Notes under the pieces: generated by a model
Told to the model about the DNA's origin: nothing
The model's database searches: none
What the model saw: the letters and a program-made list of their open reading frames with translations, nothing else
Part shown: one piece after another, positions 34,295-64,000 of the stretch
How the letters are laid out: each line of letters starts with the position of its first letter
Numbering within the stretch: the first letter of the stretch is position 1
Position numbers and translations under genes: made by a program
DNA from: Ignavibacteriales bacterium
GTDB taxonomy: Bacteria; Bacteroidota; Ignavibacteria; Ignavibacteriales; Melioribacteraceae
DNA length: 64,000 bases
NCBI GenBank assembly: GCA_021740915.1
Contig: JAIOYW010000004.1
Location: 1-64,000, forward strand
Direction: 5' to 3'

Positions 34295-34423
34295 CTGAGC
34301 ATCAGAATAAAATTTGACATTGCTCCGTGACCAGTTGATACAATCGCCACTTCCCTGCACAACTTGAAATTTAGCAAATTAAAAAGCATTTTAAGAGGAT
34401 TAAAAATATATGGTTCTCTTAAA

Positions 34424-36250
34424 ATGCTCTTTTATTATGTTTTGTTATCCTTCTTCCTTTCATTAGCCGGTATCATTCAGCCGGCCGAAAATGGTCTTAT
34501 AAATGTTCAGAACAGATCAAGAACTTCACTCAACGGAGAGTGGAAAATTATTGTTGATCCCTATGAAAATGGGTATTACAATTACAGGTATGAGGCTTTC
34601 GATAATTCACCAAACCCCGGGAAAGCGGCATATTTTACGGATTCCAAAGCCGCTGGCAAAACCGAATTGGTAGAATATGATTTCGATAGATCAGAATCCC
34701 TTATTGTACCCGACGACTGGAATACACAGAATGAAAAATTATTTTATTACGAAGGGACAGTCTGGTACCGGAAGAAATTTGATTTTAGTATTAAGACTGG
34801 GACGAACCAGGTATTTCTTTATTTCGGGGCCGTAAACTATATAGCGGAGGTATATCTGAATGGCAGTAAACTTGGAATCCATGAGGGCGGCTTTACACCA
34901 TTCATATTTAATATCACTGACAGGATAAAAGAAAAAGATAATTCACTTGTAATAAAGGTTGATAATAAGCGGATAAAAGAAGGCGTACCGACACTCAATA
35001 CCGATTGGTGGAATTACGGTGGTATCACGAGGGATGTTGATATTATTGAAGTTCCCGGAACATACATCAGTGATTATATGATACAACTCAATCCTTCCGC
35101 CGGGAAAGAAATTACAGGCTATATAAAACTTGGCGGGATTGACATTTCAAACCGGCAGATTACATTATTTATCCCCGAATTAAATATCAAAGAAAAGTTT
35201 AAGAGTGATTCAAACGGGAAATGCATAATCTCGCTTGTATCAGATAGTATTCAATATTGGAGTCCCGACTTGCCTAAATTATATTCTGTCACAATTGCAG
35301 CGCCGCAGGATACTATTAACGACCGTATCGGATTTCGTACAATAAAAGCTGACGGTAGCAAATTGCTCCTAAATGGCAGGAAAATATTTCTGAAAGGGAT
35401 TTCAATACATGAGGAGAAGCCTTTTGGAGGCGGAAGAGCTAATTCAAAAGAGGATGCTTTGCAATTGCTCAATTGGTCGAAAGAATTGGGCTGTAATTTT
35501 GTGCGCCTTGCACATTATCCTCATAACGAATTTATGCCCCGGCTGGCTGATTCACTTGGAATTATGCTCTGGGAAGAGATACCTGTTTACTGGACAATAC
35601 AATGGGAGAATGAATCAACAAGTCAAAATGCAGAAAATCAGCTCTCCGAAATGATCTTCCGCGATAAGAACAGGGCGTCTGTTATACTTTGGTCGATGGC
35701 AAATGAAACTCCGGTAAGTGAAGCCAGAAATAATTTCCTGATCAGACTTTCCGCGAAAGCAAGAATGCTTGATAAAACAAGATTGATCAGTGCTGCACTT
35801 GAGCAAGGCAGTTATATGGGAGATCCGTTAAAAAGGACAATTTCTGATCCTTTCGCTGAGGTAGTTGATGTACTGAGTTTTAACCAGTATATCGGATGGT
35901 ACGATGGCACTCCCGAAAAAGCAGAAACAATCACCTGGGAAATAACACAGAATAAACCGGTTATCATTTCCGAGTTCGGCGGCGGCGCAAAAGCAGGATA
36001 CCACGGCAAGAGGGAAGCAAGATGGACTGAGGAGTATCAGGCTTATCTTTATGAGGAAAATATTAAAATGCTTCAAAAAATTGATAAGTTATGCGGGATG
36101 TCCCCCTGGATACTTAAAGACTTTCGTTCACCGCGAAGAGTTCTGCCCGGAATCCAGGATGGATGGAACAGGAAAGGACTTATTTCCGAAGCAGGAGAAA
36201 AAAAGGCTGCCTTTTATGTCCTCAAAAATTTCTATGAAAATAAAAACTGA
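34424..36250 (+). CDS. Glycoside hydrolase family 2 (beta-galactosidase/beta-glucuronidase-like)
   Basis: This gene encodes 609 residues from the ATG at 34424, which yields the signal peptide MLFYYVLLSFFLSLAGIIQ; a TTG at 34364 would add 20 basic residues. The sugar-binding domain (about 25-170), Ig-like domain (about 195-290) and TIM barrel (about 295-600) are in family order. The acid/base Glu is in WSMANETPV (Glu428) and the nucleophile in ISEFGGG (Glu517). HYPHNEFMPRLADSLGIMLW precedes them. It would cleave beta-galactosides, beta-glucuronides or related sugars outside the cytoplasm. It lacks the C-terminal extensions of longer family members. Confidence 0.92.
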   Translation: MLFYYVLLSFFLSLAGIIQPAENGLINVQNRSRTSLNGEWKIIVDPYENGYYNYRYEAFDNSPNPGKAAYFTDSKAAGKTELVEYDFDRSESLIVPDDWNTQNEKLFYYEGTVWYRKKFDFSIKTGTNQVFLYFGAVNYIAEVYLNGSKLGIHEGGFTPFIFNITDRIKEKDNSLVIKVDNKRIKEGVPTLNTDWWNYGGITRDVDIIEVPGTYISDYMIQLNPSAGKEITGYIKLGGIDISNRQITLFIPELNIKEKFKSDSNGKCIISLVSDSIQYWSPDLPKLYSVTIAAPQDTINDRIGFRTIKADGSKLLLNGRKIFLKGISIHEEKPFGGGRANSKEDALQLLNWSKELGCNFVRLAHYPHNEFMPRLADSLGIMLWEEIPVYWTIQWENESTSQNAENQLSEMIFRDKNRASVILWSMANETPVSEARNNFLIRLSAKARMLDKTRLISAALEQGSYMGDPLKRTISDPFAEVVDVLSFNQYIGWYDGTPEKAETITWEITQNKPVIISEFGGGAKAGYHGKREARWTEEYQAYLYEENIKMLQKIDKLCGMSPWILKDFRSPRRVLPGIQDGWNRKGLISEAGEKKAAFYVLKNFYENKN

Positions 36251-53057: not shown

Positions 53058-56000
53058 TTATCTTAGAAGTATCATCTTTTTAACACTCGAGTATTTTTTG
53101 CCTGTCGATAACCCTTCGGCGCTGAATGAGTATATATACATACCCGATGCAGCTTCATTGGCATTCCAGATAATACTATAATAACCCTGCTCCATCACTT
53201 CATTCACAAGTGTCCCGACAATTTGACCAAGAGCATTATAAATTGTCAGGCGCACCCTTGACTGTTCGGGTAATGAGAATTTAACCGTTGTAGCGGGATT
53301 AAAAGGATTGGGATAATTCTGTGCAAGGCTGAATTCCTTAGGAGTAAAATCAACATCTACTTCAATGATATTCAGGTACTCATAAGTCCCGTCATAATTG
53401 ATCTGTCTGAGACGGTAGGAAACAATACCCTTATAAGAAAAGTCGGAGAAATTATCACGGTATGAGTATTCGCTCTGCCGGGTGGTTGAACCCATTCCTT
53501 CGATAAATATGAGTTTTTCCCAATTACCGTTTGTCTTCCTTTCGAGATCGAAGCCTTTGTTGTTGGTCTCCGTTGCAGTTGACCATGCAATGTTAATATT
53601 AAAGCCCTCAACGGAACCGTTAAATGACACAAGTTCAACCGGGATTGGTATTTCGACGATTGCCTGATTACTGTATGCTGAGACAGTATCAGCATTGTAA
53701 GCCTGCAGACGATAAGTGTAAAAAGACGACGGAGCAACTGTAGTGTCGGTATAATGTATTGTATTTGCAGCAACCGAATCAATAATGATATAAGGAGCAA
53801 CAAACAAAGAATCTCCGTCCTTTCTTTCAATAATAAAACCGGATTCATTTGAAGAATTGTCAATCCATTGTAATTCTACATCACCGGGTTGAGTAGCAAC
53901 TGCAAAAAGATCTGATGGGGCAGCGATAGGTTCATAGCTTATGTTTAATATTCCGGAAACATTGCTGTTGCCATTCCAGAATCCACCGCCATCGGTGCTG
54001 TATCCACCATAAACATATTCACTGTTATTCAATCTGAATCTGCTGGCATAAAACCATGTGCCGTTCGGAATATCTGAACCAAGTGAAGCAGTATATTCAT
54101 CCTGATCTGAAAAGTCAGCATCATAAGCCGCAATAATCCAGTTATTCCATCCCGAGGGGTTTGTGTTCGAACTATTGTAACCAACCCAGACTTCAATCCC
54201 GGCACCCTGTCCCTGCCCGGTTGTTATTCCATTGGCAAAAACGCGGGCTTTTACATCAATAGAATTCCCCGTATAAATAGAAGCATTCCCGGGAGACTGC
54301 AAATTGGCGAAGCCTATTGTCTCAAGAGTTGTGAAATTACGAGGATCAGTCCATTCAGACTCACCCCCTGTGTTGATTACTTTTACTCTCCAGTAGTAAG
54401 TTTGATTTCCTGATAAACCGGCGACCGTATAAAGAGTGTCCTGAACCAGAACATCAGTAAATATATTTTGGAATTGATTATCGGTTGCTACCATAAGGCG
54501 ATAATCAATTGCGCGAAGAGCTTCTCCCCAAACAAGTTCGGGATTAACAGATACCCCCGTTGCGCCATCTGACGGAGATATAAGATAAGTTGATCCCGGA
54601 GGTAAACTGTTTACGGAGCCGTTATCATAATTAACTGAAAGCGGTTGTCCCAGGATATCAGCTATTTCTGATTGGTCCGGATCAAATGTCAGTGCTGAAT
54701 AACCTGATACATACTGGAATTTGAGTTCTGTGAGAACCCCCATTCCTAAACTGGCTCCATTAATATCGTCCCAGGCTATAACAAGTTTTCCATTTACGGC
54801 ATTTGCAAGAGCGCCATCAAAAGCCGGATCCCAGTTTAGCGCCCTTCCCCATTTAAGAACTGTGGGGTCAAAATTAATTGTAAGTGTTATTGCGCCTACA
54901 TTAAACATATTCGAAACATTCAGAGGGAAAACAATACTATCGCCAAATTCCGCCGTTTTATCTTCAAGACTAAATAAAGGTGGTAAAACTTCGCCAATTG
55001 TGAATGCTGCATCGCTCTGATCTGATATTGACGGATTAGTGCTTGAACTGACCTTTATAAATGCATCCGGGGTCTGAGTATCAGGAACCAGCCATGAATA
55101 TGAATAGAGCATCGTGGATGATTGAATTCCGTTTCCGCCTTTAGTTTTCTTCGATTTAGAGACCCCGGAATTCACATTTCTTGAATTAGATTTTGCAGGA
55201 TCATAATCCCCGACAACTTCAATCCATGTGCCGCCGCCATCGGTCGAATAGTCAATATCGAACACAGAAATGCCTTCTGCACTCCATTCAACTGACTGCA
55301 TTGTATTTGCATTCCAGATTTCACCGCCATTAGGTGCAGTGATAGCTACCGATGCTCCGGGTGTGATCTGGAACGGGGCATCACTCACATCAGAAATCGT
55401 TGGCGATTCCTCCGCTGTAAGTTTAATGAGCGCTTCCGATGTCTGAATTGAAGGCACTGTCCATAAGTAAGTTCCGCTTAAAGGAGAGACTCCCATTGCA
55501 ATAGAGTTCCATGAATCGCCGGCATCGGATGAATACTCAATTTTAATTGATTGAATCCCGTTACTCAGCCATTTGATCTCTTCACTAGTGTTTCCGCCGA
55601 AAATTTCTCCGCCGTTCGGTCTAAGAACAACAAGATATTCTTCAAGTTCTGTGGAAACTGAACCATTTACATACATCGGCTCGAGTACGCTTACATTAAC
55701 ATCTACGATTTCTGACATATCCTCATTGAAATCCAGAACCGTTGTTCCGCCAGCATAGTCGAAATGAAGATCGACGAGAAGTCCTGCTAAGAGGGAAGCG
55801 CCATTGACATCGTCCCAGGCTAAAGTTACTTTACCATCCCCGCCGTTGGCAAGAGCACCATCAAAAAGCGGGTTCCAGTTTTCTGCTGATACCCAATCCA
55901 AAACGTCTTCATTATAATTAATAACGATTGTGAATGCACCAATATTGTTGAAATTATCAACTGTTATAGGAACAGTAACGTTTTCGCCGGGATTCGCAAT

Positions 56001-59000
56001 GACTTCAGCAGCTGTTACAGTTAATTCCAAAGTCGCAACAATGGAAAATACAGCATCACTGGTGTCATTTATCTGCGGATCATCTGCAGAAACAATCCTG
56101 ACCAGCGCCTGATCTGTATTCATAGCCGTGACCGTCCAGTTATAAGATTGATCTATTGCTGGCACTCCCTGTGCTATATTCACCCATTCGCTGCCGTTAT
56201 TTGTGCTTAACTGAATATCGACAGAATCAACTCCAATGCTGCTCCATGTAATCTGTTCCATCGTATTTCCAACAAATAATTCCCCGCCGTTCGGACGTGT
56301 GACCATAATTTCCGGCTGGATAGTAATTGTGAAAACAGATTCACTAACCGAAGTGATTGAGGGATTTTGGGAATCGGTAAGCCTGATCAGGTTTTCGCTG
56401 CCGGAGATCAATGGCACAGTCCACTCATATGAGTTATTTGAGGCAGTTACTGAATTGGCAATTGGTGACCATGAATCTCCATTATCAGTACTCAGTTCAA
56501 TGTTGAGGGTTGTAACCTGTCCGGATATCCATTGAATATTCACGAGAGAACCTGCAAAAAGTGTTTCCCCGCCATCAGGATAAATTATATTTACATACTG
56601 ACTGACTGATGAACTGACTTCCCCATCAATCAGATTAAGCTCATAAACTTCTCCGAGCTCATTTGCAATTTCAGTAGCAGTCTCATTCAGATCAACTGCA
56701 GCGGTCCCGCCATAATAATCGAACACTCCGTCAAACATGAGAGAATTCTCAAGCGATACTGATTCAACGGCATCCCATGCAAGTGTAAGAACACCATTGA
56801 CATCGTTAATGAGTGCACCGTCCAGGAGTGGATTGATGTTCTGAGCTTCAACAAACAGTAGTTTTGAGGTATCGTAATTAATTACCAGAGTTACCGCACC
56901 TACCTCATTAAAATTCTCTACAGAAATAGGAACTATTACCTGAGTTCCGGGAACTCCGCTGACATTACCAGCAATCACAGTATGAATGAGTTGTTCATTA
57001 ATTACAAAAGTTTCGCTCACATGATAATTTAAAGCACTATTCCCTGTCTCTGAGACACGCACCTTGCCCTGAACAGTAGGAGTATTGGGCACAGTCCAGT
57101 TGTAGGATGCAGGAGAAGCCGGAACAGAAGCAGCGACTGAAATCCAGCTGTTACCGAGATCTGTCGAATAATCAATATTAATATTCGCAACCCCGAGCTG
57201 TTTCCATTTAATCTGGAAAATGTCATCAGGATATAAAGTATCTGCCGATGTCGGAGCCAGAACAAGAACATATGGTAATGTTATTGTAAAATCTGATTCA
57301 CTTTCATCGGTTGTTGAGGGATTATCGACATCAGTCAGCCGGACTCTTGCTGCACTTGTTACAATCTGTGGTAATGACCATGAATATGATCCGCCCGCAG
57401 CCGGAGTACTTTCGATGACTGTCTGCCAGCTTTGCCCGGAATTTGTCGAGTACTCAATCTTGATATTTGTTACTCCGCCGCTTTGCCATAAAATGTCCTG
57501 CATCGAACCGGATAACCATTCCTCACCACCATTTGGAGTCGTAAGAGATATGGCACCTGATGCTGTAATCGTAAATGAATTATCCGAGATATCAAAGTAA
57601 TTGCCGTTATCGGAATTCCTTACTCTTATTCTGGCATTTTGCGTTAGAACCTGCGGTACAAGCCATTCTCTCGAATTGGCTTTATCAGTTGGGAAAATGA
57701 TATTGATCCAGTCGGCGCCCCCGTTTGTCGAATAATCAAATTCTACAGGGAATACACCAAAATTTTCCCAGCTTAAGGTATAGACAGAACCCGACTGTAA
57801 AACTTCCCCGCCATTGGGAGCAAGCAAAAGTAACGGGTAAGGATTTATCGTCGAATTTTCAAAAGTGACAAGCAGAGGGTTGCCAAGTATATCAGTGATT
57901 TCCGAATTTTGCGTATTAAAAGTTATCAACCGGGAACCGTCAGCAGGTGTTCCGGTAAATATGAATTTCAGTTCAACAAAAGTGCCGGGAGGCATTGTGG
58001 CACCTGCAAGGTCGTCCCAGGCTATTGTAACTGTACCACCCTGACCATTTATCAACACTCCGCTGAAATTCTCATCCAGATTTTCATACCCTGAAAATTC
58101 GAAAAGCTCAGCATCATAATTAATATTTAGAGTAAGCGCTCCGGCACCTATCAGGTTATCAGCGAGAAGCGGCACGTTTATCGTATCGCCCGGTTTAACG
58201 TCTTCAAGCGAAGAGAGAGTCAACCCAATGGGTTCAATTGTAAAAGGTCCGTACTCTTCGGAAATATCATGAGCTGGAGAATTGCTGATCCTTAACAGAG
58301 CATTATCTGTGATCATACTCTCTTCAACTACAAAATCATAACTCGAATCTGTGGAAGCCTGGACGAGATAACTCCACCCGTTTTCCTGAGTAAATAGTTC
58401 CAGATCGAAGGAGCTTATCCCGAAGGAAGTCCACTTTATTTCGTTTGTGGAACCCGGTACCAGAGTTGAGAAGTTGACGACCGGATCAAAATTAACGTAG
58501 GGTTCGGCAATGGAAAAATTAGCTGCGCTAATATCTTTTACGTCAGGGTTTGAAGAATCGGTGATCCTGACTAAAGCGGATGCCGTTGGTGTGTTCGGAA
58601 CCGTCCACTGATATGTGCCCGTTCCTGCCGGCAATGATTGGGCAACGCTGATCCAGTTCATTCCATTATCAGTCGAGTAATCCAGATCAACATTTTCCAC
58701 ACTCACGCTGTTCCAGGTGACAGGGTGAACTGACCCAACAGCCCAGACTTCTCCTCCGTTCGGTGAAATCAGACTTATTGCTGAAGCCGCTGCTATTGTA
58801 AAATCGGCGTCGCTTTCATCGTAAATCTGAGTATCTGATGAGGATGAGATTTTAATTAATGCCTGATCAGTAAGCGTATTAGGTATTGTCCATGAATAAC
58901 CGAAATTTGTGGTCTGAAATGCATCTTCTATCGTTGTCCAGTTACTTCCTGAATTTGTTGAGTATTCAATCTTAAATGATGTAAGATTATAGGCTTCCCA

Positions 59001-60764
59001 TGTAATTGTCTGAGAAGTTCCGACCTGCCATATTTCCCCGCCATCCGGTGCTGTCACCAGGAGTGGGAATGGAGTGAAAGCGGCATCAGCAAAATCAGCT
59101 GTAAGTGGATTTCCCGATATGTCTGTGATATCAGTAAGCTGCTGATCAAAAGCTAATGCGGCTTCTCCAGTAGCTGGAGTACCGAGATATTTGAAATTAA
59201 AATCGGCAATTTTGCCGGCTGCAATCGAAGTGCCGCTGAGCGCATCCCAGGATACAGTAAGTACTCCGTTTACTGCGTTTATTGTTGCACCGGGCAAAGA
59301 CTGGTTCAGGTTTGTATAAGAAATATAATTATAAACCTGAGGATCAAAATTGATTTTTATCGTGATTGCACCAACACCGAGCAAATTTTCCACATTGAGT
59401 GAGGAAGTAATATCGGCATCGGGTAGAATACTGTCCCCACCGGTAAGGCTGAGATGTATATAGTCAATAACAAAAGCCTCATCGCTCGTATCGGATAACT
59501 GCTGATCCGCTGCATCGGTAATTTTAATAAAAGCATTTTCAGATAAGGCATCCGGAACCATCCAGGTGTATGATCCGGAACCCGCATTCAGCCCTGCTGC
59601 TATCGCCGTAAAAGACTGCCCTCCGTCCGTTGAATAATCAATATCAACTGTGCTTATTCCAACGGAATTCCATGTGATTTCATAAGCAGAACCAACGACA
59701 AGAACTTCTCCGCCATTTGGGTTCAGAACCGTGACAGAGGGCGGAATGATACTGAAAACAGATTCACTCACATCGCCGGTATTTGCATTCGACTGATCGC
59801 TTACCCTGACGAGAGCCTGATCAGTCGCAGGTGAAGTAACTGTCCACTGATATGTGCCTGATGAAGCGCTTACGTCCTGCGCAATTGTTGACCAGTTCTG
59901 TCCATTATTAGTAGAATACTCGATGAGGACATTATCAATAAGCGAACTCGACCAGGTGATATTCTGCTGAGACCCGATCAGCCACTCTTCGCCGCCGTTC
60001 GGTGCAGTAAGATTAATAGTAGGCGATTCAGTTATTGTAAACACAGCATCACTTAGATCAAGATACTGACTATTAGCAGAATTTATAACTCCAATCAGGT
60101 TCTGCTGAGATACAGTCTCAGGCACCAGCCATGAATAACTCCCGGAGGCTGTAGAAAGATTTTGTACCACAGGAATCCATGTCGCACCATTATCAGTACT
60201 ATGTCCGATATCAATGTTTGATATCTGATAAACCTCAAAAGTTATATCTTTTGTGGAACCTGCCTGCCATACTTCTCCCCCGTTTGGCGAAGTCAGAAGG
60301 ATTGGATAAGGATCGATAAAACCATCGGTATAATCTGTCTGCAGCGGATCGCCAAGTTCATCACTTACAATGCTCGAAGCATCAAAGGCAAGTTCAGTCC
60401 TTCCGTCGCCGGCAGTTCCGGTGTATTTTAGTTTAAGATCAAGGAGTTGTGCATCACCAAGGTTTATTGCTTCAAGACCTAACCAGTCCATAATAATCTG
60501 ACCCTGGTTGATGGTAACGACCAGATCCTGAGCGACTGCAGGATTAATATTTAATGCTCTGCCGCCTTCAACCTCTGTTGCGTCAAAATTCAGTTTCAAA
60601 GTGAAACTTGCAACCCCGTTGAAACTTCCCAAATCAATCGGGATTATTACACTGTCACCCGGTGATGCGTCTGCGGCATTTCCGGCAGTAACTGTAATCT
60701 GCGCAGTTACTGCGGAAAATCCGGTTAACAGTAAAATCATTAAAACTTTTATTAAACTTTTCAT
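53058..60764 (-). CDS. Giant T9SS surface protein with six cohesin-like and thirteen Ig-like modules
   Basis: This gene encodes 2,568 residues. I start at the ATG at 60764, which gives the signal peptide MKSLIKVLMILLLTGFSAVT; three earlier ATG codons add only 4-10 residues. Cohesin-like modules lie at about 22-150, 437-572, 847-983, 1260-1385, 1579-1705 and 1930-2052 (pattern PGDxVxxPI, GAxTLxINFD, then NGxLxxAWDD). Between them are Ig-like modules opening with PNGGE, in groups of 3, 3, 3, 2 and 2. The C-terminal part has an Fn3-like domain, a beta-rich domain, two more Fn3-like modules (about 2280-2470) and a T9SS sorting domain with NYPNPFNP (about 2480-2568). It has the layout of a scaffoldin, though no cellulose-binding module is visible. 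Confidence 0.9.
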   Translation of the reverse strand: MKSLIKVLMILLLTGFSAVTAQITVTAGNAADASPGDSVIIPIDLGSFNGVASFTLKLNFDATEVEGGRALNINPAVAQDLVVTINQGQIIMDWLGLEAINLGDAQLLDLKLKYTGTAGDGRTELAFDASSIVSDELGDPLQTDYTDGFIDPYPILLTSPNGGEVWQAGSTKDITFEVYQISNIDIGHSTDNGATWIPVVQNLSTASGSYSWLVPETVSQQNLIGVINSANSQYLDLSDAVFTITESPTINLTAPNGGEEWLIGSQQNITWSSSLIDNVLIEYSTNNGQNWSTIAQDVSASSGTYQWTVTSPATDQALVRVSDQSNANTGDVSESVFSIIPPSVTVLNPNGGEVLVVGSAYEITWNSVGISTVDIDYSTDGGQSFTAIAAGLNAGSGSYTWMVPDALSENAFIKITDAADQQLSDTSDEAFVIDYIHLSLTGGDSILPDADITSSLNVENLLGVGAITIKINFDPQVYNYISYTNLNQSLPGATINAVNGVLTVSWDALSGTSIAAGKIADFNFKYLGTPATGEAALAFDQQLTDITDISGNPLTADFADAAFTPFPLLVTAPDGGEIWQVGTSQTITWEAYNLTSFKIEYSTNSGSNWTTIEDAFQTTNFGYSWTIPNTLTDQALIKISSSSDTQIYDESDADFTIAAASAISLISPNGGEVWAVGSVHPVTWNSVSVENVDLDYSTDNGMNWISVAQSLPAGTGTYQWTVPNTPTASALVRITDSSNPDVKDISAANFSIAEPYVNFDPVVNFSTLVPGSTNEIKWTSFGISSFDLELFTQENGWSYLVQASTDSSYDFVVEESMITDNALLRISNSPAHDISEEYGPFTIEPIGLTLSSLEDVKPGDTINVPLLADNLIGAGALTLNINYDAELFEFSGYENLDENFSGVLINGQGGTVTIAWDDLAGATMPPGTFVELKFIFTGTPADGSRLITFNTQNSEITDILGNPLLVTFENSTINPYPLLLLAPNGGEVLQSGSVYTLSWENFGVFPVEFDYSTNGGADWINIIFPTDKANSREWLVPQVLTQNARIRVRNSDNGNYFDISDNSFTITASGAISLTTPNGGEEWLSGSMQDILWQSGGVTNIKIEYSTNSGQSWQTVIESTPAAGGSYSWSLPQIVTSAARVRLTDVDNPSTTDESESDFTITLPYVLVLAPTSADTLYPDDIFQIKWKQLGVANINIDYSTDLGNSWISVAASVPASPASYNWTVPNTPTVQGKVRVSETGNSALNYHVSETFVINEQLIHTVIAGNVSGVPGTQVIVPISVENFNEVGAVTLVINYDTSKLLFVEAQNINPLLDGALINDVNGVLTLAWDAVESVSLENSLMFDGVFDYYGGTAAVDLNETATEIANELGEVYELNLIDGEVSSSVSQYVNIIYPDGGETLFAGSLVNIQWISGQVTTLNIELSTDNGDSWSPIANSVTASNNSYEWTVPLISGSENLIRLTDSQNPSITSVSESVFTITIQPEIMVTRPNGGELFVGNTMEQITWSSIGVDSVDIQLSTNNGSEWVNIAQGVPAIDQSYNWTVTAMNTDQALVRIVSADDPQINDTSDAVFSIVATLELTVTAAEVIANPGENVTVPITVDNFNNIGAFTIVINYNEDVLDWVSAENWNPLFDGALANGGDGKVTLAWDDVNGASLLAGLLVDLHFDYAGGTTVLDFNEDMSEIVDVNVSVLEPMYVNGSVSTELEEYLVVLRPNGGEIFGGNTSEEIKWLSNGIQSIKIEYSSDAGDSWNSIAMGVSPLSGTYLWTVPSIQTSEALIKLTAEESPTISDVSDAPFQITPGASVAITAPNGGEIWNANTMQSVEWSAEGISVFDIDYSTDGGGTWIEVVGDYDPAKSNSRNVNSGVSKSKKTKGGNGIQSSTMLYSYSWLVPDTQTPDAFIKVSSSTNPSISDQSDAAFTIGEVLPPLFSLEDKTAEFGDSIVFPLNVSNMFNVGAITLTINFDPTVLKWGRALNWDPAFDGALANAVNGKLVIAWDDINGASLGMGVLTELKFQYVSGYSALTFDPDQSEIADILGQPLSVNYDNGSVNSLPPGSTYLISPSDGATGVSVNPELVWGEALRAIDYRLMVATDNQFQNIFTDVLVQDTLYTVAGLSGNQTYYWRVKVINTGGESEWTDPRNFTTLETIGFANLQSPGNASIYTGNSIDVKARVFANGITTGQGQGAGIEVWVGYNSSNTNPSGWNNWIIAAYDADFSDQDEYTASLGSDIPNGTWFYASRFRLNNSEYVYGGYSTDGGGFWNGNSNVSGILNISYEPIAAPSDLFAVATQPGDVELQWIDNSSNESGFIIERKDGDSLFVAPYIIIDSVAANTIHYTDTTVAPSSFYTYRLQAYNADTVSAYSNQAIVEIPIPVELVSFNGSVEGFNINIAWSTATETNNKGFDLERKTNGNWEKLIFIEGMGSTTRQSEYSYRDNFSDFSYKGIVSYRLRQINYDGTYEYLNIIEVDVDFTPKEFSLAQNYPNPFNPATTVKFSLPEQSRVRLTIYNALGQIVGTLVNEVMEQGYYSIIWNANEAASGMYIYSFSAEGLSTGKKYSSVKKMILLR

Positions 60765-60798
60765 ACTCATATCCATATTATTTGCAGTAAACACAATG

Positions 60799-61557
60799 CT
60801 ATTTCAGTAATAATACTTTATGGATCGATAATGATCCGCTCTCCTGTTCAAAGGGTATTGCACGGACCATGATAAAGTATTGACCGCTCGGATAAGCCGA
60901 GAAATCAAGATTTTTGCTAAATCTCCCTTTTATTGCTTCAAATCTGCCGGGCGAATTATTCATTAACTGTCCGGTCAGATCAAATATTTTAACTTCCATT
61001 TTCGTTTCAGAATCCGATTCAATAGAAAGTGCGCTTGAGGAGTTGAAGGGATTCGGGTAAACGGAAGATCGGAAAACCCGAGAATTGTCCTGTGAATTTT
61101 CCACGGAACTGATAGCGGGACTGATTAGTCCGTCTAAGTAAGTTATACTTTTAGGGTTACCCACTGTGTCGGTGATTTCCGAAAAATCCTGATCAAAAGA
61201 GATCAGTGAACTGATTCCTGTAAATTCAAAGGTGAAACTAATTATTTCTTCATCTGATATTGTCACTCCGGCAATATTCTCCCACGACAAATAAATACTG
61301 CCCGAAATACTATTGATAAGCGTCGATGAAAAATCCGCATTTAGAATCTGTGAGGATATAAAACGCAGCGAAAGAGTATCAAAATCAATTTTTAGAGTAA
61401 TCGCTCCGGCAGCATTCAAAGATGAGTAAAGTACTACTGTCAGGTTTTCACCCTGTGCCGCTTCGGCGTCATTTATCCGCATAAATTCCTGCCCGTAGGA
61501 GCCGGGAAAATTTGCAAATGCAAGCGCCAACATCAGTATGAGAATTTCATTTTTCAA
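60799..61557 (-). CDS. Small T9SS protein with a single cohesin-like module
   Basis: This gene encodes 252 residues with a signal peptide (about 1-22). Residues about 26-148 form one cohesin-like module: AAQGENLTVVLYSSL, GAITLKIDFDTLSL, then GSIYLSWENIAG. A T9SS type A sorting domain with YPNPFNSSSALS occupies about 165-252. It lies 34 bp upstream of the giant gene and 51 bp downstream of the truncated neighbour, all on one strand, so the three probably form an operon. Confidence 0.88.
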   Translation of the reverse strand: MKNEILILMLALAFANFPGSYGQEFMRINDAEAAQGENLTVVLYSSLNAAGAITLKIDFDTLSLRFISSQILNADFSSTLINSISGSIYLSWENIAGVTISDEEIISFTFEFTGISSLISFDQDFSEITDTVGNPKSITYLDGLISPAISSVENSQDNSRVFRSSVYPNPFNSSSALSIESDSETKMEVKIFDLTGQLMNNSPGRFEAIKGRFSKNLDFSAYPSGQYFIMVRAIPFEQESGSLSIHKVLLLK

Positions 61558-61570
61558 TATTCTTTTAGTT

Positions 61571-61595
61571 ATGCGGGAGGTTATACCTCCCGCAT
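61571..61595 (-). terminator. GC-rich hairpin between cohesin genes
   Basis: atgcgggaggt and acctcccgcat form an 11-bp stem with a 3-nt loop. There is no T-run, so it may attenuate transcription or set mRNA ends within the operon. Confidence 0.55.
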
Positions 61596-61608
61596 ATATT
61601 AATTGAAA

Positions 61609-64000
61609 TTATTTCATCAGCATCATTTTAAGGGTTCTTGTAAATGATGAACCCGGTGAAACTGCGTTTAGTCTGTAAACATATATACCTGATGCAAGAT
61701 TTCCTGCCTCAAAAGTGACTTCGTATGAACCCGCTTTCTGGCTTTGATTAACGATTGTTGCAACTTTCTCACCGACAATGCTGTAAACTTCGAGAGTTAC
61801 TGAGCTGTTATTCGGCAGATCGTAAGTTATCGTTGTAGAAGGATTGAACGGGTTTGGATAATTCTGTTTAAGTGAGAAATCGGTAGGTCTGAATATCTCA
61901 ACGGAATTGGTCGATAATTGCAGATCGATAGATTTGGCAAGGACATCTGCAAATTCATTTTCGGCCGAAGTCTGGAAATCGAAAATTGTACCAGCATCAG
62001 CATTTTCTGATACCTTAAATACGAGCGAGAATAAAGTCTCTCCCGCTTTTACCTGAAGAGGCTGCAAATCGTCCCATGCTATGCTGATCAAACCTTCATT
62101 TTCATTGAAAACTAAACCGCTGCCGGCAAATCTGATAGATTTGAAACTCAGATTATCAGAATCATATTTAATTCCGGCAGTTATTGCAGCTATGTCGGCA
62201 TTATAGTTAACTGATACTGGCAATTCAAAGGTTTCGCCCGGTTTTACGTACTGTTTTGTTCCGGCGCTTAAAGCCAGAAACTCGGTTGATTTTGCTATCG
62301 GAATATTTGAATATGATGCATTGACATCACCTACAGTCAATCCGAGCAAGTTTTGTGTGGCATTTTGTCCTGCAACTGTAACATCGGGTTTTGTAAATTT
62401 CCAGTCACCGGCGGCGAAGCCTGGATCGAGACCGACAGTCCTTCTTCTGATAAGCAGCGCATCGGTAGAATTAACAGAGTTACTTCCATTAACATCTGCT
62501 ACAACAAGTCTCAACCCTTCGAGAAGAGTCAAACCTACTGTGTGCCTGCGTACAAGCAATGCGTCAGTTGAATTGACACCACCCCATGCTTTTGTCGTTG
62601 TCGAGCTGATAGTATAGGTTCCGTTCTCAACCTGATCAATCTGATATGCTCCATCTGAACCGGTAAGATCAGTCCCAATGCTTTGACCGCCGAGCATCAG
62701 ACTGACAGATACATTAGAAAGAGCCGTATTTGCAGTATTATCATACTGAACAAGTCCGCTCACTGAATATGTCGAGGGTAAGATTGAAAAATAAGCATCA
62801 CTTACGTCGTAAGTCATAGGATTGGAAGCATCCGATATTTTTATCAAAGCTGACGTGGTGGGTGTATTCGGCACTGCCCACTGATAAGAACCTGTTGAAG
62901 CATTCAGCCCGGTTGCAATGGTCTCGAAATTATTTCCGCCGTCAGTCGAGTAAGCAAGATCAACCTGGGCAATGTTAAATGTGAGCCATTCGATTAGGAA
63001 ATCGGAAGAAGCAAATATGTTCTCACCGCCATTTGGAGTGGTAACAGTAACCGGTGCTACACTTACATTTCCGTTTTCGTAAAATACTGTTATCAGATTA
63101 CCTTCAGGATCGCTGACTTCGCATCCCGCAACATTGAAGTCTATCCCTGATTCTCCGCCAATATATGTGAATTTGATATCAAATAACTTTCCGTCCGGAA
63201 CATTTATTCCGGTAAAAGTATTGTCAACCCATGAAAAGTTTACAAATCCATTAGAAGCATTTGCAAGAGCGCCGGTGATCTGAGGATTGTAATTCGTCAA
63301 TGCCTGATATGTAAGAACTGCGGGATCGTATGCAATCTTAAAAGTGATTGCACCAACATTGTTAAAATTCATTGCAGTAACAGGAACATAAACTGTATGC
63401 CCGGGAGCTGCCTGAACCGTTCCTGCTTTTACCAGAACAGGTGTAACAACATGAATTGTAGATGTAACTTCATCAAAGAGGTCACCATCTGATACTTTGA
63501 CTGTAAAGGTGAAATCGCCTGTGTTTTGGGGAGTCCACTCAAAAAATCCGGCAGGGCTTAATGTCGCGCCATCCGGCAGATCAGCGGATGAGAATATCAG
63601 ATCATCATTTTCAGGATCTTCTGCATCATACGGATACGGGAAATACATACCAACAGGAATCGTGGTTTCCGAGATGTATTGAGTAAAATAAGGAGCTGTA
63701 TTTCCAAGTGTTGTCACCGTAGCGACATTACTGTAATCCGACTCAAGTTCGGTATTAAAAGCTTTGACCCGGTAATTATAAGTTGTAAATTGTGCAACTG
63801 AGTTATCCGTATAGGATGTTTCATTCTCACCTAAAGTAGCAATTACTGTGAATGTCTTTTCAGTGCCCTCTTCGCGTTCCACTGTAAATCCGGTTTCATT
63901 CGAAGAATTATCTGCCCAGGTTAGTGCAACTGAACCTATACCAAGATTTTCTGCACTCAAATCAGAAGGAGCATTGATTCCCGGAGCTTCGGTAGAATAA
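61609..64000 (-). CDS. T9SS surface protein with Fn3, cohesin-like, Ig-like and dockerin-like modules (5'-truncated by window)
   Basis: The frame is open at the window edge, so the N-terminus is missing; about 797 residues are visible. From the N-terminal side: an Fn3 module (APSDLSAENLG to about 64-90 residues on), a cadherin/He_PIG-like module (AEDPENDDLIFSSADLPDG), a cohesin-like module (APGHTVYVPVTAMNFNNVG), a PNGGE Ig-like module, a carboxypeptidase-regulatory-like sandwich, then a dockerin-like segment with GGVNSTDALLVRRHTVG and DVNGSNSVNSTDALLIRRR (about 62430-62590). A second cohesin-like module and a T9SS sorting domain (NYPNPFNPSTTITYDL) end the protein. The presence of both dockerin- and cohesin-like parts is unusual. 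Confidence 0.88.
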   Translation of the reverse strand, partial: YSTEAPGINAPSDLSAENLGIGSVALTWADNSSNETGFTVEREEGTEKTFTVIATLGENETSYTDNSVAQFTTYNYRVKAFNTELESDYSNVATVTTLGNTAPYFTQYISETTIPVGMYFPYPYDAEDPENDDLIFSSADLPDGATLSPAGFFEWTPQNTGDFTFTVKVSDGDLFDEVTSTIHVVTPVLVKAGTVQAAPGHTVYVPVTAMNFNNVGAITFKIAYDPAVLTYQALTNYNPQITGALANASNGFVNFSWVDNTFTGINVPDGKLFDIKFTYIGGESGIDFNVAGCEVSDPEGNLITVFYENGNVSVAPVTVTTPNGGENIFASSDFLIEWLTFNIAQVDLAYSTDGGNNFETIATGLNASTGSYQWAVPNTPTTSALIKISDASNPMTYDVSDAYFSILPSTYSVSGLVQYDNTANTALSNVSVSLMLGGQSIGTDLTGSDGAYQIDQVENGTYTISSTTTKAWGGVNSTDALLVRRHTVGLTLLEGLRLVVADVNGSNSVNSTDALLIRRRTVGLDPGFAAGDWKFTKPDVTVAGQNATQNLLGLTVGDVNASYSNIPIAKSTEFLALSAGTKQYVKPGETFELPVSVNYNADIAAITAGIKYDSDNLSFKSIRFAGSGLVFNENEGLISIAWDDLQPLQVKAGETLFSLVFKVSENADAGTIFDFQTSAENEFADVLAKSIDLQLSTNSVEIFRPTDFSLKQNYPNPFNPSTTITYDLPNNSSVTLEVYSIVGEKVATIVNQSQKAGSYEVTFEAGNLASGIYVYRLNAVSPGSSFTRTLKMMLMK

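What the first reader, a model, noticed from the sequence alone, without database searches (positions are those of the whole stretch)
53058..64000. Cohesin-rich T9SS locus resembling a non-cellulosomal scaffold
Three same-strand genes in a row carry nine cohesin-like modules in total (six, one and two). All end in T9SS sorting domains. The largest repeats cohesin modules separated by Ig-like modules in a regular 3-3-3-2-2 pattern, as a surface scaffold would. Classical cellulosomes are from Firmicutes; a T9SS-exported version has, to my knowledge, little description.
Basis: partly seen in the sequence, partly recalled or inferred. Interest (0 to 1): 0.75.

Follow-up and report, generated by a model that had tools for sequence, protein, structure and literature searches.

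The report
Enzyme-free cohesin-dockerin surface operon
Three neighbouring genes in a relative of Melioribacter encode exported surface proteins carrying nine "sockets" (cohesins) and one matching "plug" (dockerin) but no enzymes, which suggests that the parts known from cellulose-digesting complexes are used here to assemble structural proteins on the cell surface.

Summary
The three minus-strand genes carry 6+1+2 cohesin modules. Ig-like modules sit between them in a 3-3-3-2-2 pattern, and every protein ends in a T9SS tail. One Coh-Ig-Ig-Ig unit models well (pLDDT 89), and its cohesin matches solved type I cohesins (Z up to 17.4).

The third gene runs on past the window (1202 aa in all), and it carries a type I-like dockerin between its two cohesins. 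The operon therefore encodes its own plug as well as its sockets. The whole genome has only three dockerins, all in Coh-Doc-Coh-T9SS proteins. None is on an enzyme, so this is not a cellulosome.

The arrangement recurs. In 17 loci fetched, from Ignavibacteriota, Balneola and others, a dockerin gene is followed directly by a gene with a cohesin right after the signal peptide. One is in the cultured Melioribacter roseus; another is an ortholog of all three genes.

Best reading: a self-contained, enzyme-free cohesin-dockerin system that assembles surface proteins exported by T9SS. Binding is inferred, not shown. A structure prediction of the dockerin gene failed, and co-variation of plug and socket was inconclusive once relatedness was controlled. 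Verdict: new variant of a known kind.

The parts
61609..64000 (-). Gene A (first gene of the operon; continues outside the window to contig position 65217, 1202 aa in all): signal peptide - unknown module/FN3 repeats - cohesin - Ig - CarboxypepD_reg - dockerin - cohesin - T9SS tail
63088..63426 (-). Gene A cohesin before the dockerin (CohN), same lineage as the cohesins of genes B and C
   Evidence: PF00963 46.4 bits; own profile 5e-32; tree
62428..62610 (-). Type I-like dockerin of gene A: two near-identical repeats GVNSTDALLVRRHTVGL / SVNSTDALLIRRRTVGL (14 of 17 identical), second calcium loop canonical, first degenerate
   Evidence: PF00404 33.2 bits; profile 3.7e-24; 1ohz/2ccl dockerins about 1e-4
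61924..62259 (-). Gene A cohesin after the dockerin (CohC)
   Evidence: PF00963 38.7 bits; own profile 4e-21
61663..61860 (-). Gene A T9SS type A sorting tail
   Evidence: TIGR04183 34.7 bits
60799..61557 (-). Gene B (252 aa): signal peptide - one cohesin - T9SS tail
61147..61476 (-). Gene B cohesin
   Evidence: own profile 4e-18 (a seed of that profile); not found by Pfam; ortholog L026:11922-12641 scores 2e-23
53058..60794 (-). Gene C (2578 aa): six-cohesin scaffold with Ig spacers, FN3-like modules, T9SS tail
60339..60680 (-). Gene C cohesin 1
   Evidence: own profile 7e-25
59466..60317 (-). three Ig-like (Kre9_KNH-type) modules
59109..59453 (-). Gene C cohesin 2
   Evidence: PF00963 32.8 bits
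58245..59072 (-). three Ig-like modules, the third with a degenerate start motif
57885..58223 (-). Gene C cohesin 3 (modelled: cohesin fold, Z up to 17.4)
   Evidence: PF00963 38.9 bits
57000..57845 (-). three Ig-like modules (modelled)
56628..56987 (-). Gene C cohesin 4
   Evidence: PF00963 31 bits
56040..56603 (-). two Ig-like modules
55665..56021 (-). Gene C cohesin 5
   Evidence: PF00963 36.6 bits
54993..55643 (-). two Ig-like modules
54627..54977 (-). Gene C cohesin 6
   Evidence: PF00963 26.9 bits
53097..53315 (-). Gene C T9SS type A sorting tail
   Evidence: TIGR04183 36 bits

Best explanation
The operon encodes a self-contained, enzyme-free cohesin-dockerin system on the cell surface. 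All three proteins leave the cell through T9SS and are processed by PorU (inferred from tails and machinery). The dockerin of protein A then binds in trans to the cohesins of protein B (one socket) and protein C (six sockets), so several copies of the A protein's N-terminal FN3 and unknown modules are displayed along an Ig-spaced scaffold. Because A also carries a cohesin of the same lineage as those of B and C, A molecules could also chain to each other. The product would be a structural or adhesive surface assembly, not a digesting machine. Shown: the modules, the fold of one unit, the T9SS tails and machinery, the gene order and its conservation, and the absence of dockerin enzymes. Inferred: binding, stoichiometry, surface location, biological role.
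For: Cohesin fold matching type I cohesins solved with their dockerins. Dockerin related by sequence to the C. thermocellum Xyn10B dockerin, with the same NSTD stretch in both repeats. Only three dockerins in the genome, all in Coh-Doc-Coh-T9SS proteins. Dockerin gene followed directly, on the same strand, by a gene whose first cohesin starts at residue 25-38, in 17 loci, including all five dockerin loci (two of them near-identical) that were fetched only for similarity to gene A. Orthologous three-gene operon in G014. CohN of gene A groups with the cohesins of genes B and C (96/75 support). Cohesin and dockerin co-occur in 296 genomes of the phylum: 62 have both, odds ratio 21, p 5e-25. SprA and PorU present.
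Against: No binding evidence. AlphaFold on the Coh-Ig-Doc-Coh part of gene A failed (pLDDT 40). Dockerin and partner cohesins co-vary (r 0.43, p 0.0004), but after control by the T9SS tail only r 0.21, p 0.065. The first calcium loop of the dockerin is degenerate. The dockerin might instead pack on its own neighbouring cohesin. Co-occurrence is partly built in, because many dockerin proteins also hold a cohesin, and relatedness of genomes is not controlled. Most loci were fetched because they had cohesin or dockerin hits.
Confidence: 0.58

Rival explanations
1. The dockerin pairs within the same chain, with the neighbouring CohN or CohC. The module is a stabilising clasp next to the T9SS tail, and the cohesins of genes B and C are only stiff spacers.
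For: In all 24 dockerin proteins with a T9SS tail in the fetched loci, about 130 residues or more lie between dockerin and tail, and in 19 of them a cohesin is recognised there. These after-dockerin cohesins cluster on the tree (7 changes against 17.7 in shuffles), as a separate structural class would.
Against: Does not explain why a cohesin-only gene follows the dockerin gene so regularly, nor dockerin proteins without any cohesin of their own that sit beside such a gene (L034).
Confidence: 0.2
2. A true cellulosome-like enzyme scaffold whose dockerin enzymes are diverged or come from other cells.
For: Six-cohesin scaffold; T9SS scaffoldin with dockerin enzymes reported in Ca. Stygibacter (PMC8542988); some relatives put dockerins on CotH-kinase, DMFA2_C-like and matrixin-like proteins.
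Against: Only three dockerins in this genome even at E 10 with a dedicated profile, none on an enzyme; no carbohydrate-binding module found in gene C; in Melioribacter roseus the authors found no dockerin on cellulases (PMC3534657).
Confidence: 0.07
3. All modules are generic building blocks of large surface proteins, without any cohesin-dockerin binding.
For: The genome has at least 150 T9SS-tailed proteins; fold alone does not show function.
Against: A dockerin is not a beta spacer; its two repeats are nearly identical and keep NSTD. In the operon's cohesins and their G014 orthologs, conserved sites besides glycine and tryptophan lie on strand 3 (GAxT), part of the sheet that binds dockerin in known cohesins (exposure inferred from strand alternation).
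Confidence: 0.15

Closest known systems
Clostridial cellulosome (CipA-type scaffoldin and dockerin enzymes)
   Same: Repeated type I-like cohesins on one scaffold; dockerin with two repeats; the modelled cohesin matches CaCohA2, ScaC and CipA cohesins.
   Different: No dockerin on any enzyme, no carbohydrate-binding module found, T9SS export in a Gram-negative cell, and a dockerin that sits between two cohesins of a protein with its own sorting tail.
Ca. Stygibacter (Cloacimonadota) cellulosome-like complex, PMC8542988
   Same: C-terminal domain for surface attachment on a large multi-cohesin scaffold.
   Different: There the dockerins are on GH18, GH57, S8 and C25 enzymes and the scaffold has CBM2/CBM3; here neither is found.
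Archaeoglobus fulgidus non-cellulosomal cohesin-dockerin pair (Bayer 1999, Voronov-Goldman 2011; PDB 2xdh)
   Same: Cohesin and dockerin outside a cellulosome; from memory, two adjacent genes, one with both modules and one with a cohesin; 2xdh matches the model at Z 16.7; the pair binds and was used as a tool in PMC9705933.
   Different: Archaeal; single cohesins, no six-cohesin scaffold, no T9SS.
ANME archaeal dockerin/cohesin proteins, PMC9012536
   Same: Non-cellulosomal proteins with one dockerin and up to five cohesins.
   Different: Common dockerin-bearing partners there are ABC-transporter binding proteins; no T9SS.
Clostridium perfringens glycosidase cohesin modules (PDB 2vo8, 2jh2, 2w1n)
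   Same: Cohesin fold used outside cellulosomes, in one case next to an FN3 module.
   Different: There the modules are on enzymes.

Membership tests
Cohesin (type I-like) | PF00963 sequence match above cut-off | tested here: met
   7 of the 10 listed places in the genome lie in this operon, all over the cut-off; gene B's module only by own profile
Cohesin (type I-like) | jelly-roll cohesin fold | tested here: met
   unit model pLDDT 89; type I cohesins Z 15.3-17.4, type II about 12-13; tested on one of nine modules
Dockerin type I | PF00404 match and two duplicated segments | tested here: met
   33.2 bits; repeats 14 of 17 identical
Dockerin type I | two calcium-binding loops | tested here: inconclusive
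   second loop DVNGSNSVNSTD canonical; first loop TTKAWGGVNSTD lacks the usual ligands at positions 1, 3 and 5 by sequence; calcium binding not measured
Cellulosome | scaffoldin with several cohesins | tested here: met
   six in gene C
Cellulosome | dockerin-bearing carbohydrate-active enzymes in the same genome | tested here: not met
   three dockerins only, none on an enzyme
Cellulosome | carbohydrate-binding module on the scaffoldin | tested here: not met
   no CBM family in the Pfam scan of gene C at E 0.1; one 130-aa stretch (residues 2160-2290) stays unassigned
T9SS cargo | C-terminal type A sorting domain | tested here: met
   all three proteins
T9SS cargo | T9SS machinery in the genome | tested here: met
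   SprA 1015 bits, PorU 941 bits
T9SS cargo | signal peptide | tested here: inconclusive
   hydrophobic N-termini seen by eye in all three; no predictor run
Non-cellulosomal cohesin-dockerin system | demonstrated cohesin-dockerin binding | not testable with these tools
   model of gene A failed

The most novel reading that the evidence does not exclude
The dockerin-first operon is a dedicated surface-assembly system, used without enzymes in several T9SS-bearing groups (Ignavibacteriota, Balneola and others). The dockerin protein varies in its N-terminal part from species to species (beta-helix, BACON, FN3, unknown giants) and is plugged into a cohesin protein encoded next to it, or polymerises with itself through its own cohesins into fibres.
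Probability: 0.35. Interest if true: 0.72.

Novelty: new variant of a known kind. Interest (0 to 1): 0.52.

Why it matters
Cohesin-dockerin pairs are among the strongest known protein pairs and are studied mostly in enzyme complexes. A recurrent operon that carries both partners, exports both by T9SS and has no enzymes would show a second, structural use of the pair in Gram-negative bacteria, and would supply new orthogonal pairs for engineering. It is directly testable, because a version of it lies in the cultured Melioribacter roseus, whose genome paper states that its cellulases carry no dockerin or scaffoldin domains and concludes that cellulosomal structures are absent (PMC3534657).

Tried and rejected
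AlphaFold of gene A (window 61612-63468): pLDDT 40, unusable; I think the permitted alignment was too thin and diverse. Alignments A3 and A4 were dropped because they stacked dockerins on cohesins.

Co-variation of dockerin and partner cohesins: significant alone, not after control for relatedness; I do not count it as evidence.

Search for hidden dockerin enzymes with a dedicated profile at E 10: none.

The one genome-contig scan was dominated by T9SS tails, so most of its 80 loci carry no cohesin; five dockerin loci came out of it.

Plasmid search: the matches listed lie only in the FN3/T9SS end of gene C.

A cohesin-only reading of the operon was rejected because of the dockerin in gene A. 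A cellulosome was rejected for lack of dockerin enzymes.

Peer et al. 2009, the review of non-cellulosomal cohesins and dockerins, is not held in the library and could not be read.
Full report
WHAT IS THERE. The window is the first 64 kb of contig 5 of a 4.35-Mb genome. At its end lie three minus-strand genes in the order A (61609 to beyond the window), B (60799-61557) and C (53058-60794), with gaps of 51 and 4 bases. Gene A continues to contig position 65217 and is 1202 aa in full. Pfam finds six cohesins in C and two in A; a profile built from these modules adds one in B. B's module was a seed of that profile, so its score is not independent, but its ortholog in another genome scores 2e-23 with the same profile. 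The Ig-like spacers of C are arranged 3-3-3-2-2. All three proteins end in T9SS tails.

Gene A also holds a type I-like dockerin at 62428-62610, between its two cohesins. Its two repeats are nearly identical (14 of 17 residues) and both carry NSTD; the C. thermocellum Xyn10B dockerin is among the PDB matches. The second calcium loop is canonical, the first is degenerate. A CarboxypepD_reg module precedes it directly.

FOLD. One Coh-Ig-Ig-Ig unit of gene C was modelled from the window's own repeats with pLDDT 89. Its first 130 residues match type I cohesins at Z 15.3-17.4, rmsd mostly about 2, and type II cohesins at Z 12-13 (Foldseek TM 0.70-0.77). The part of gene A with the dockerin could not be modelled (pLDDT 40), so no structural statement about docking is made.

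THE GENOME. With Pfam and with a dedicated profile at E 10 the genome has three dockerins. All three are in proteins with the order Coh-Doc-Coh-T9SS tail; the two others carry FG-GAP and LVIVD repeats at the N-terminus. None is on an enzyme. SprA and the PorU sortase are present, and at least 150 T9SS tails. A cellulosome needs dockerin enzymes; that feature was tested and is not met.

RELATIVES. In genome G014 the three genes recur in the same order with the same architecture (909+ aa cut by the contig end, 239 aa, 2582 aa), and cohesins 1 and 6 of gene C pair with their counterparts there (100/99 and 100/95 support). More widely, a dockerin gene is followed directly and on the same strand by a gene whose first cohesin begins at residue 25-38, just after the signal peptide, in 17 loci, counting the near-identical L042 and L044 once. 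Twelve of these come from genomes of the same family or order that were fetched because they had cohesin or dockerin hits, so they are a selected set. The five dockerin loci from the named collection (L038, L041, L042, L044, L071) were fetched only for similarity to gene A, and all five show the same order. In the two other dockerin loci of the own genome (contigs 10 and 18) and in L031 and L032 no cohesin-only gene follows; in L021 the genome's cohesin genes are on another contig. In L028 cohesin genes lie on both sides. The N-terminal part of the dockerin protein varies freely: unknown regions of about 2000 residues, beta-helix, BACON, FN3.

MELIORIBACTER. Genome G008 has a single contig of 3,300,414 bases, the exact chromosome length that the genome paper gives for Melioribacter roseus (PMC3534657). 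I take G008 to be that species; the window's genome would then belong to the same family. It holds a 2166-aa dockerin protein followed by three genes with five cohesins. [quoted passage not shown] the word cohesin does not occur in it together with Melioribacter in the library search.

CO-OCCURRENCE. Of 296 genomes of the phylum, 88 have a dockerin, 83 a cohesin and 62 both (odds ratio 21, p 5e-25). Part of this is built in, as many dockerin proteins also hold a cohesin; relatedness of genomes is not controlled. Of 117 dockerin places entered, 33 have a cohesin in a different reading frame within 6 kb; the lists were cut, so this is a lower bound.

MECHANISM. The most likely reading (0.58) is that A docks by its dockerin onto the cohesins of B and C outside the cell, giving an enzyme-free surface assembly with up to six A copies per C. 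CohN of A is of the same lineage as the cohesins of B and C (96/75), so chaining of A is possible. In the operon's cohesins, sites of strand 3 (GAxT) are among the most conserved besides the tryptophan of strand 6; this strand belongs to the sheet that binds dockerin in known cohesins (established knowledge; exposure inferred from strand alternation). Dockerin and partner-cohesin distances correlate (r 0.43) but not clearly after control by the T9SS tail (r 0.21, p 0.065). The main rival is pairing within one chain: a module of about 130 residues or more, in 19 of 24 cases a recognised cohesin, lies between dockerin and T9SS tail, and these after-dockerin cohesins cluster on the tree. The rival does not explain the adjacent cohesin-only gene.

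KNOWN OR NEW. A multi-cohesin scaffold with a C-terminal attachment domain and dockerin enzymes has been described in Ca. Stygibacter (PMC8542988). Pairs outside cellulosomes are known in Archaeoglobus (2xdh; PMC9705933) and proteins with one dockerin and several cohesins in ANME archaea (PMC9012536). Searches for cohesin with Melioribacter or Ignavibacteria found no paper that, by title and abstract, describes such an operon; the library lacks most subscription journals, including Peer et al. 2009. The combination seen here (both partners in one operon, both with T9SS tails, no enzymes, dockerin gene first) is a new variant of a known kind.

Noticed in passing
L034:347-9241 (genome G029): Two dockerin proteins (CotH kinase type, 918 aa; DMFA2_C-like, 743 aa) end 44 residues after the dockerin with no T9SS tail, and are followed by a T9SS-tailed protein with an N-terminal cohesin: candidates for cargo held only by its dockerin.
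   Followed up: partly
L021:7567-10896 (genome G012): A protein with a weak matrixin (M10) match ends in a dockerin, without T9SS tail; the genome's cohesin genes are on another contig.
   Followed up: partly
genomes G277, G100, G186, G074, G190: Genomes of the same phylum with 7 to 13 dockerins each, which may hold true T9SS enzyme complexes.
   Followed up: no
window 53925-54317 (gene C residues 2160-2290): A 130-residue stretch (NLQSPGNASIYTGNSIDVKARVFANGITTGQGQGAGIEVWVGYN...) without Pfam match; could be a binding module.
   Followed up: no
L009:1610-5218, about residues 20-170 and 262-410 of gene A (outside the window): An unknown module occurs twice, nearly identical, at the N-terminus of gene A (SVPVDVSDGVGGQYVLTFGLHPDATDGLDPALGEEELPPAPPAGIFDTRFQLPNS...).
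   Followed up: no
genome G000, C8:98301-102917 and C8:120538-125511: Two further long proteins with partial matches to the T9SS sortase model (PorU), below its cut-off, lie about 20 kb apart.
   Followed up: no
window 34364-36250: A glycoside hydrolase family 2 gene; no dockerin or T9SS tail match in the Pfam scan.
   Followed up: no
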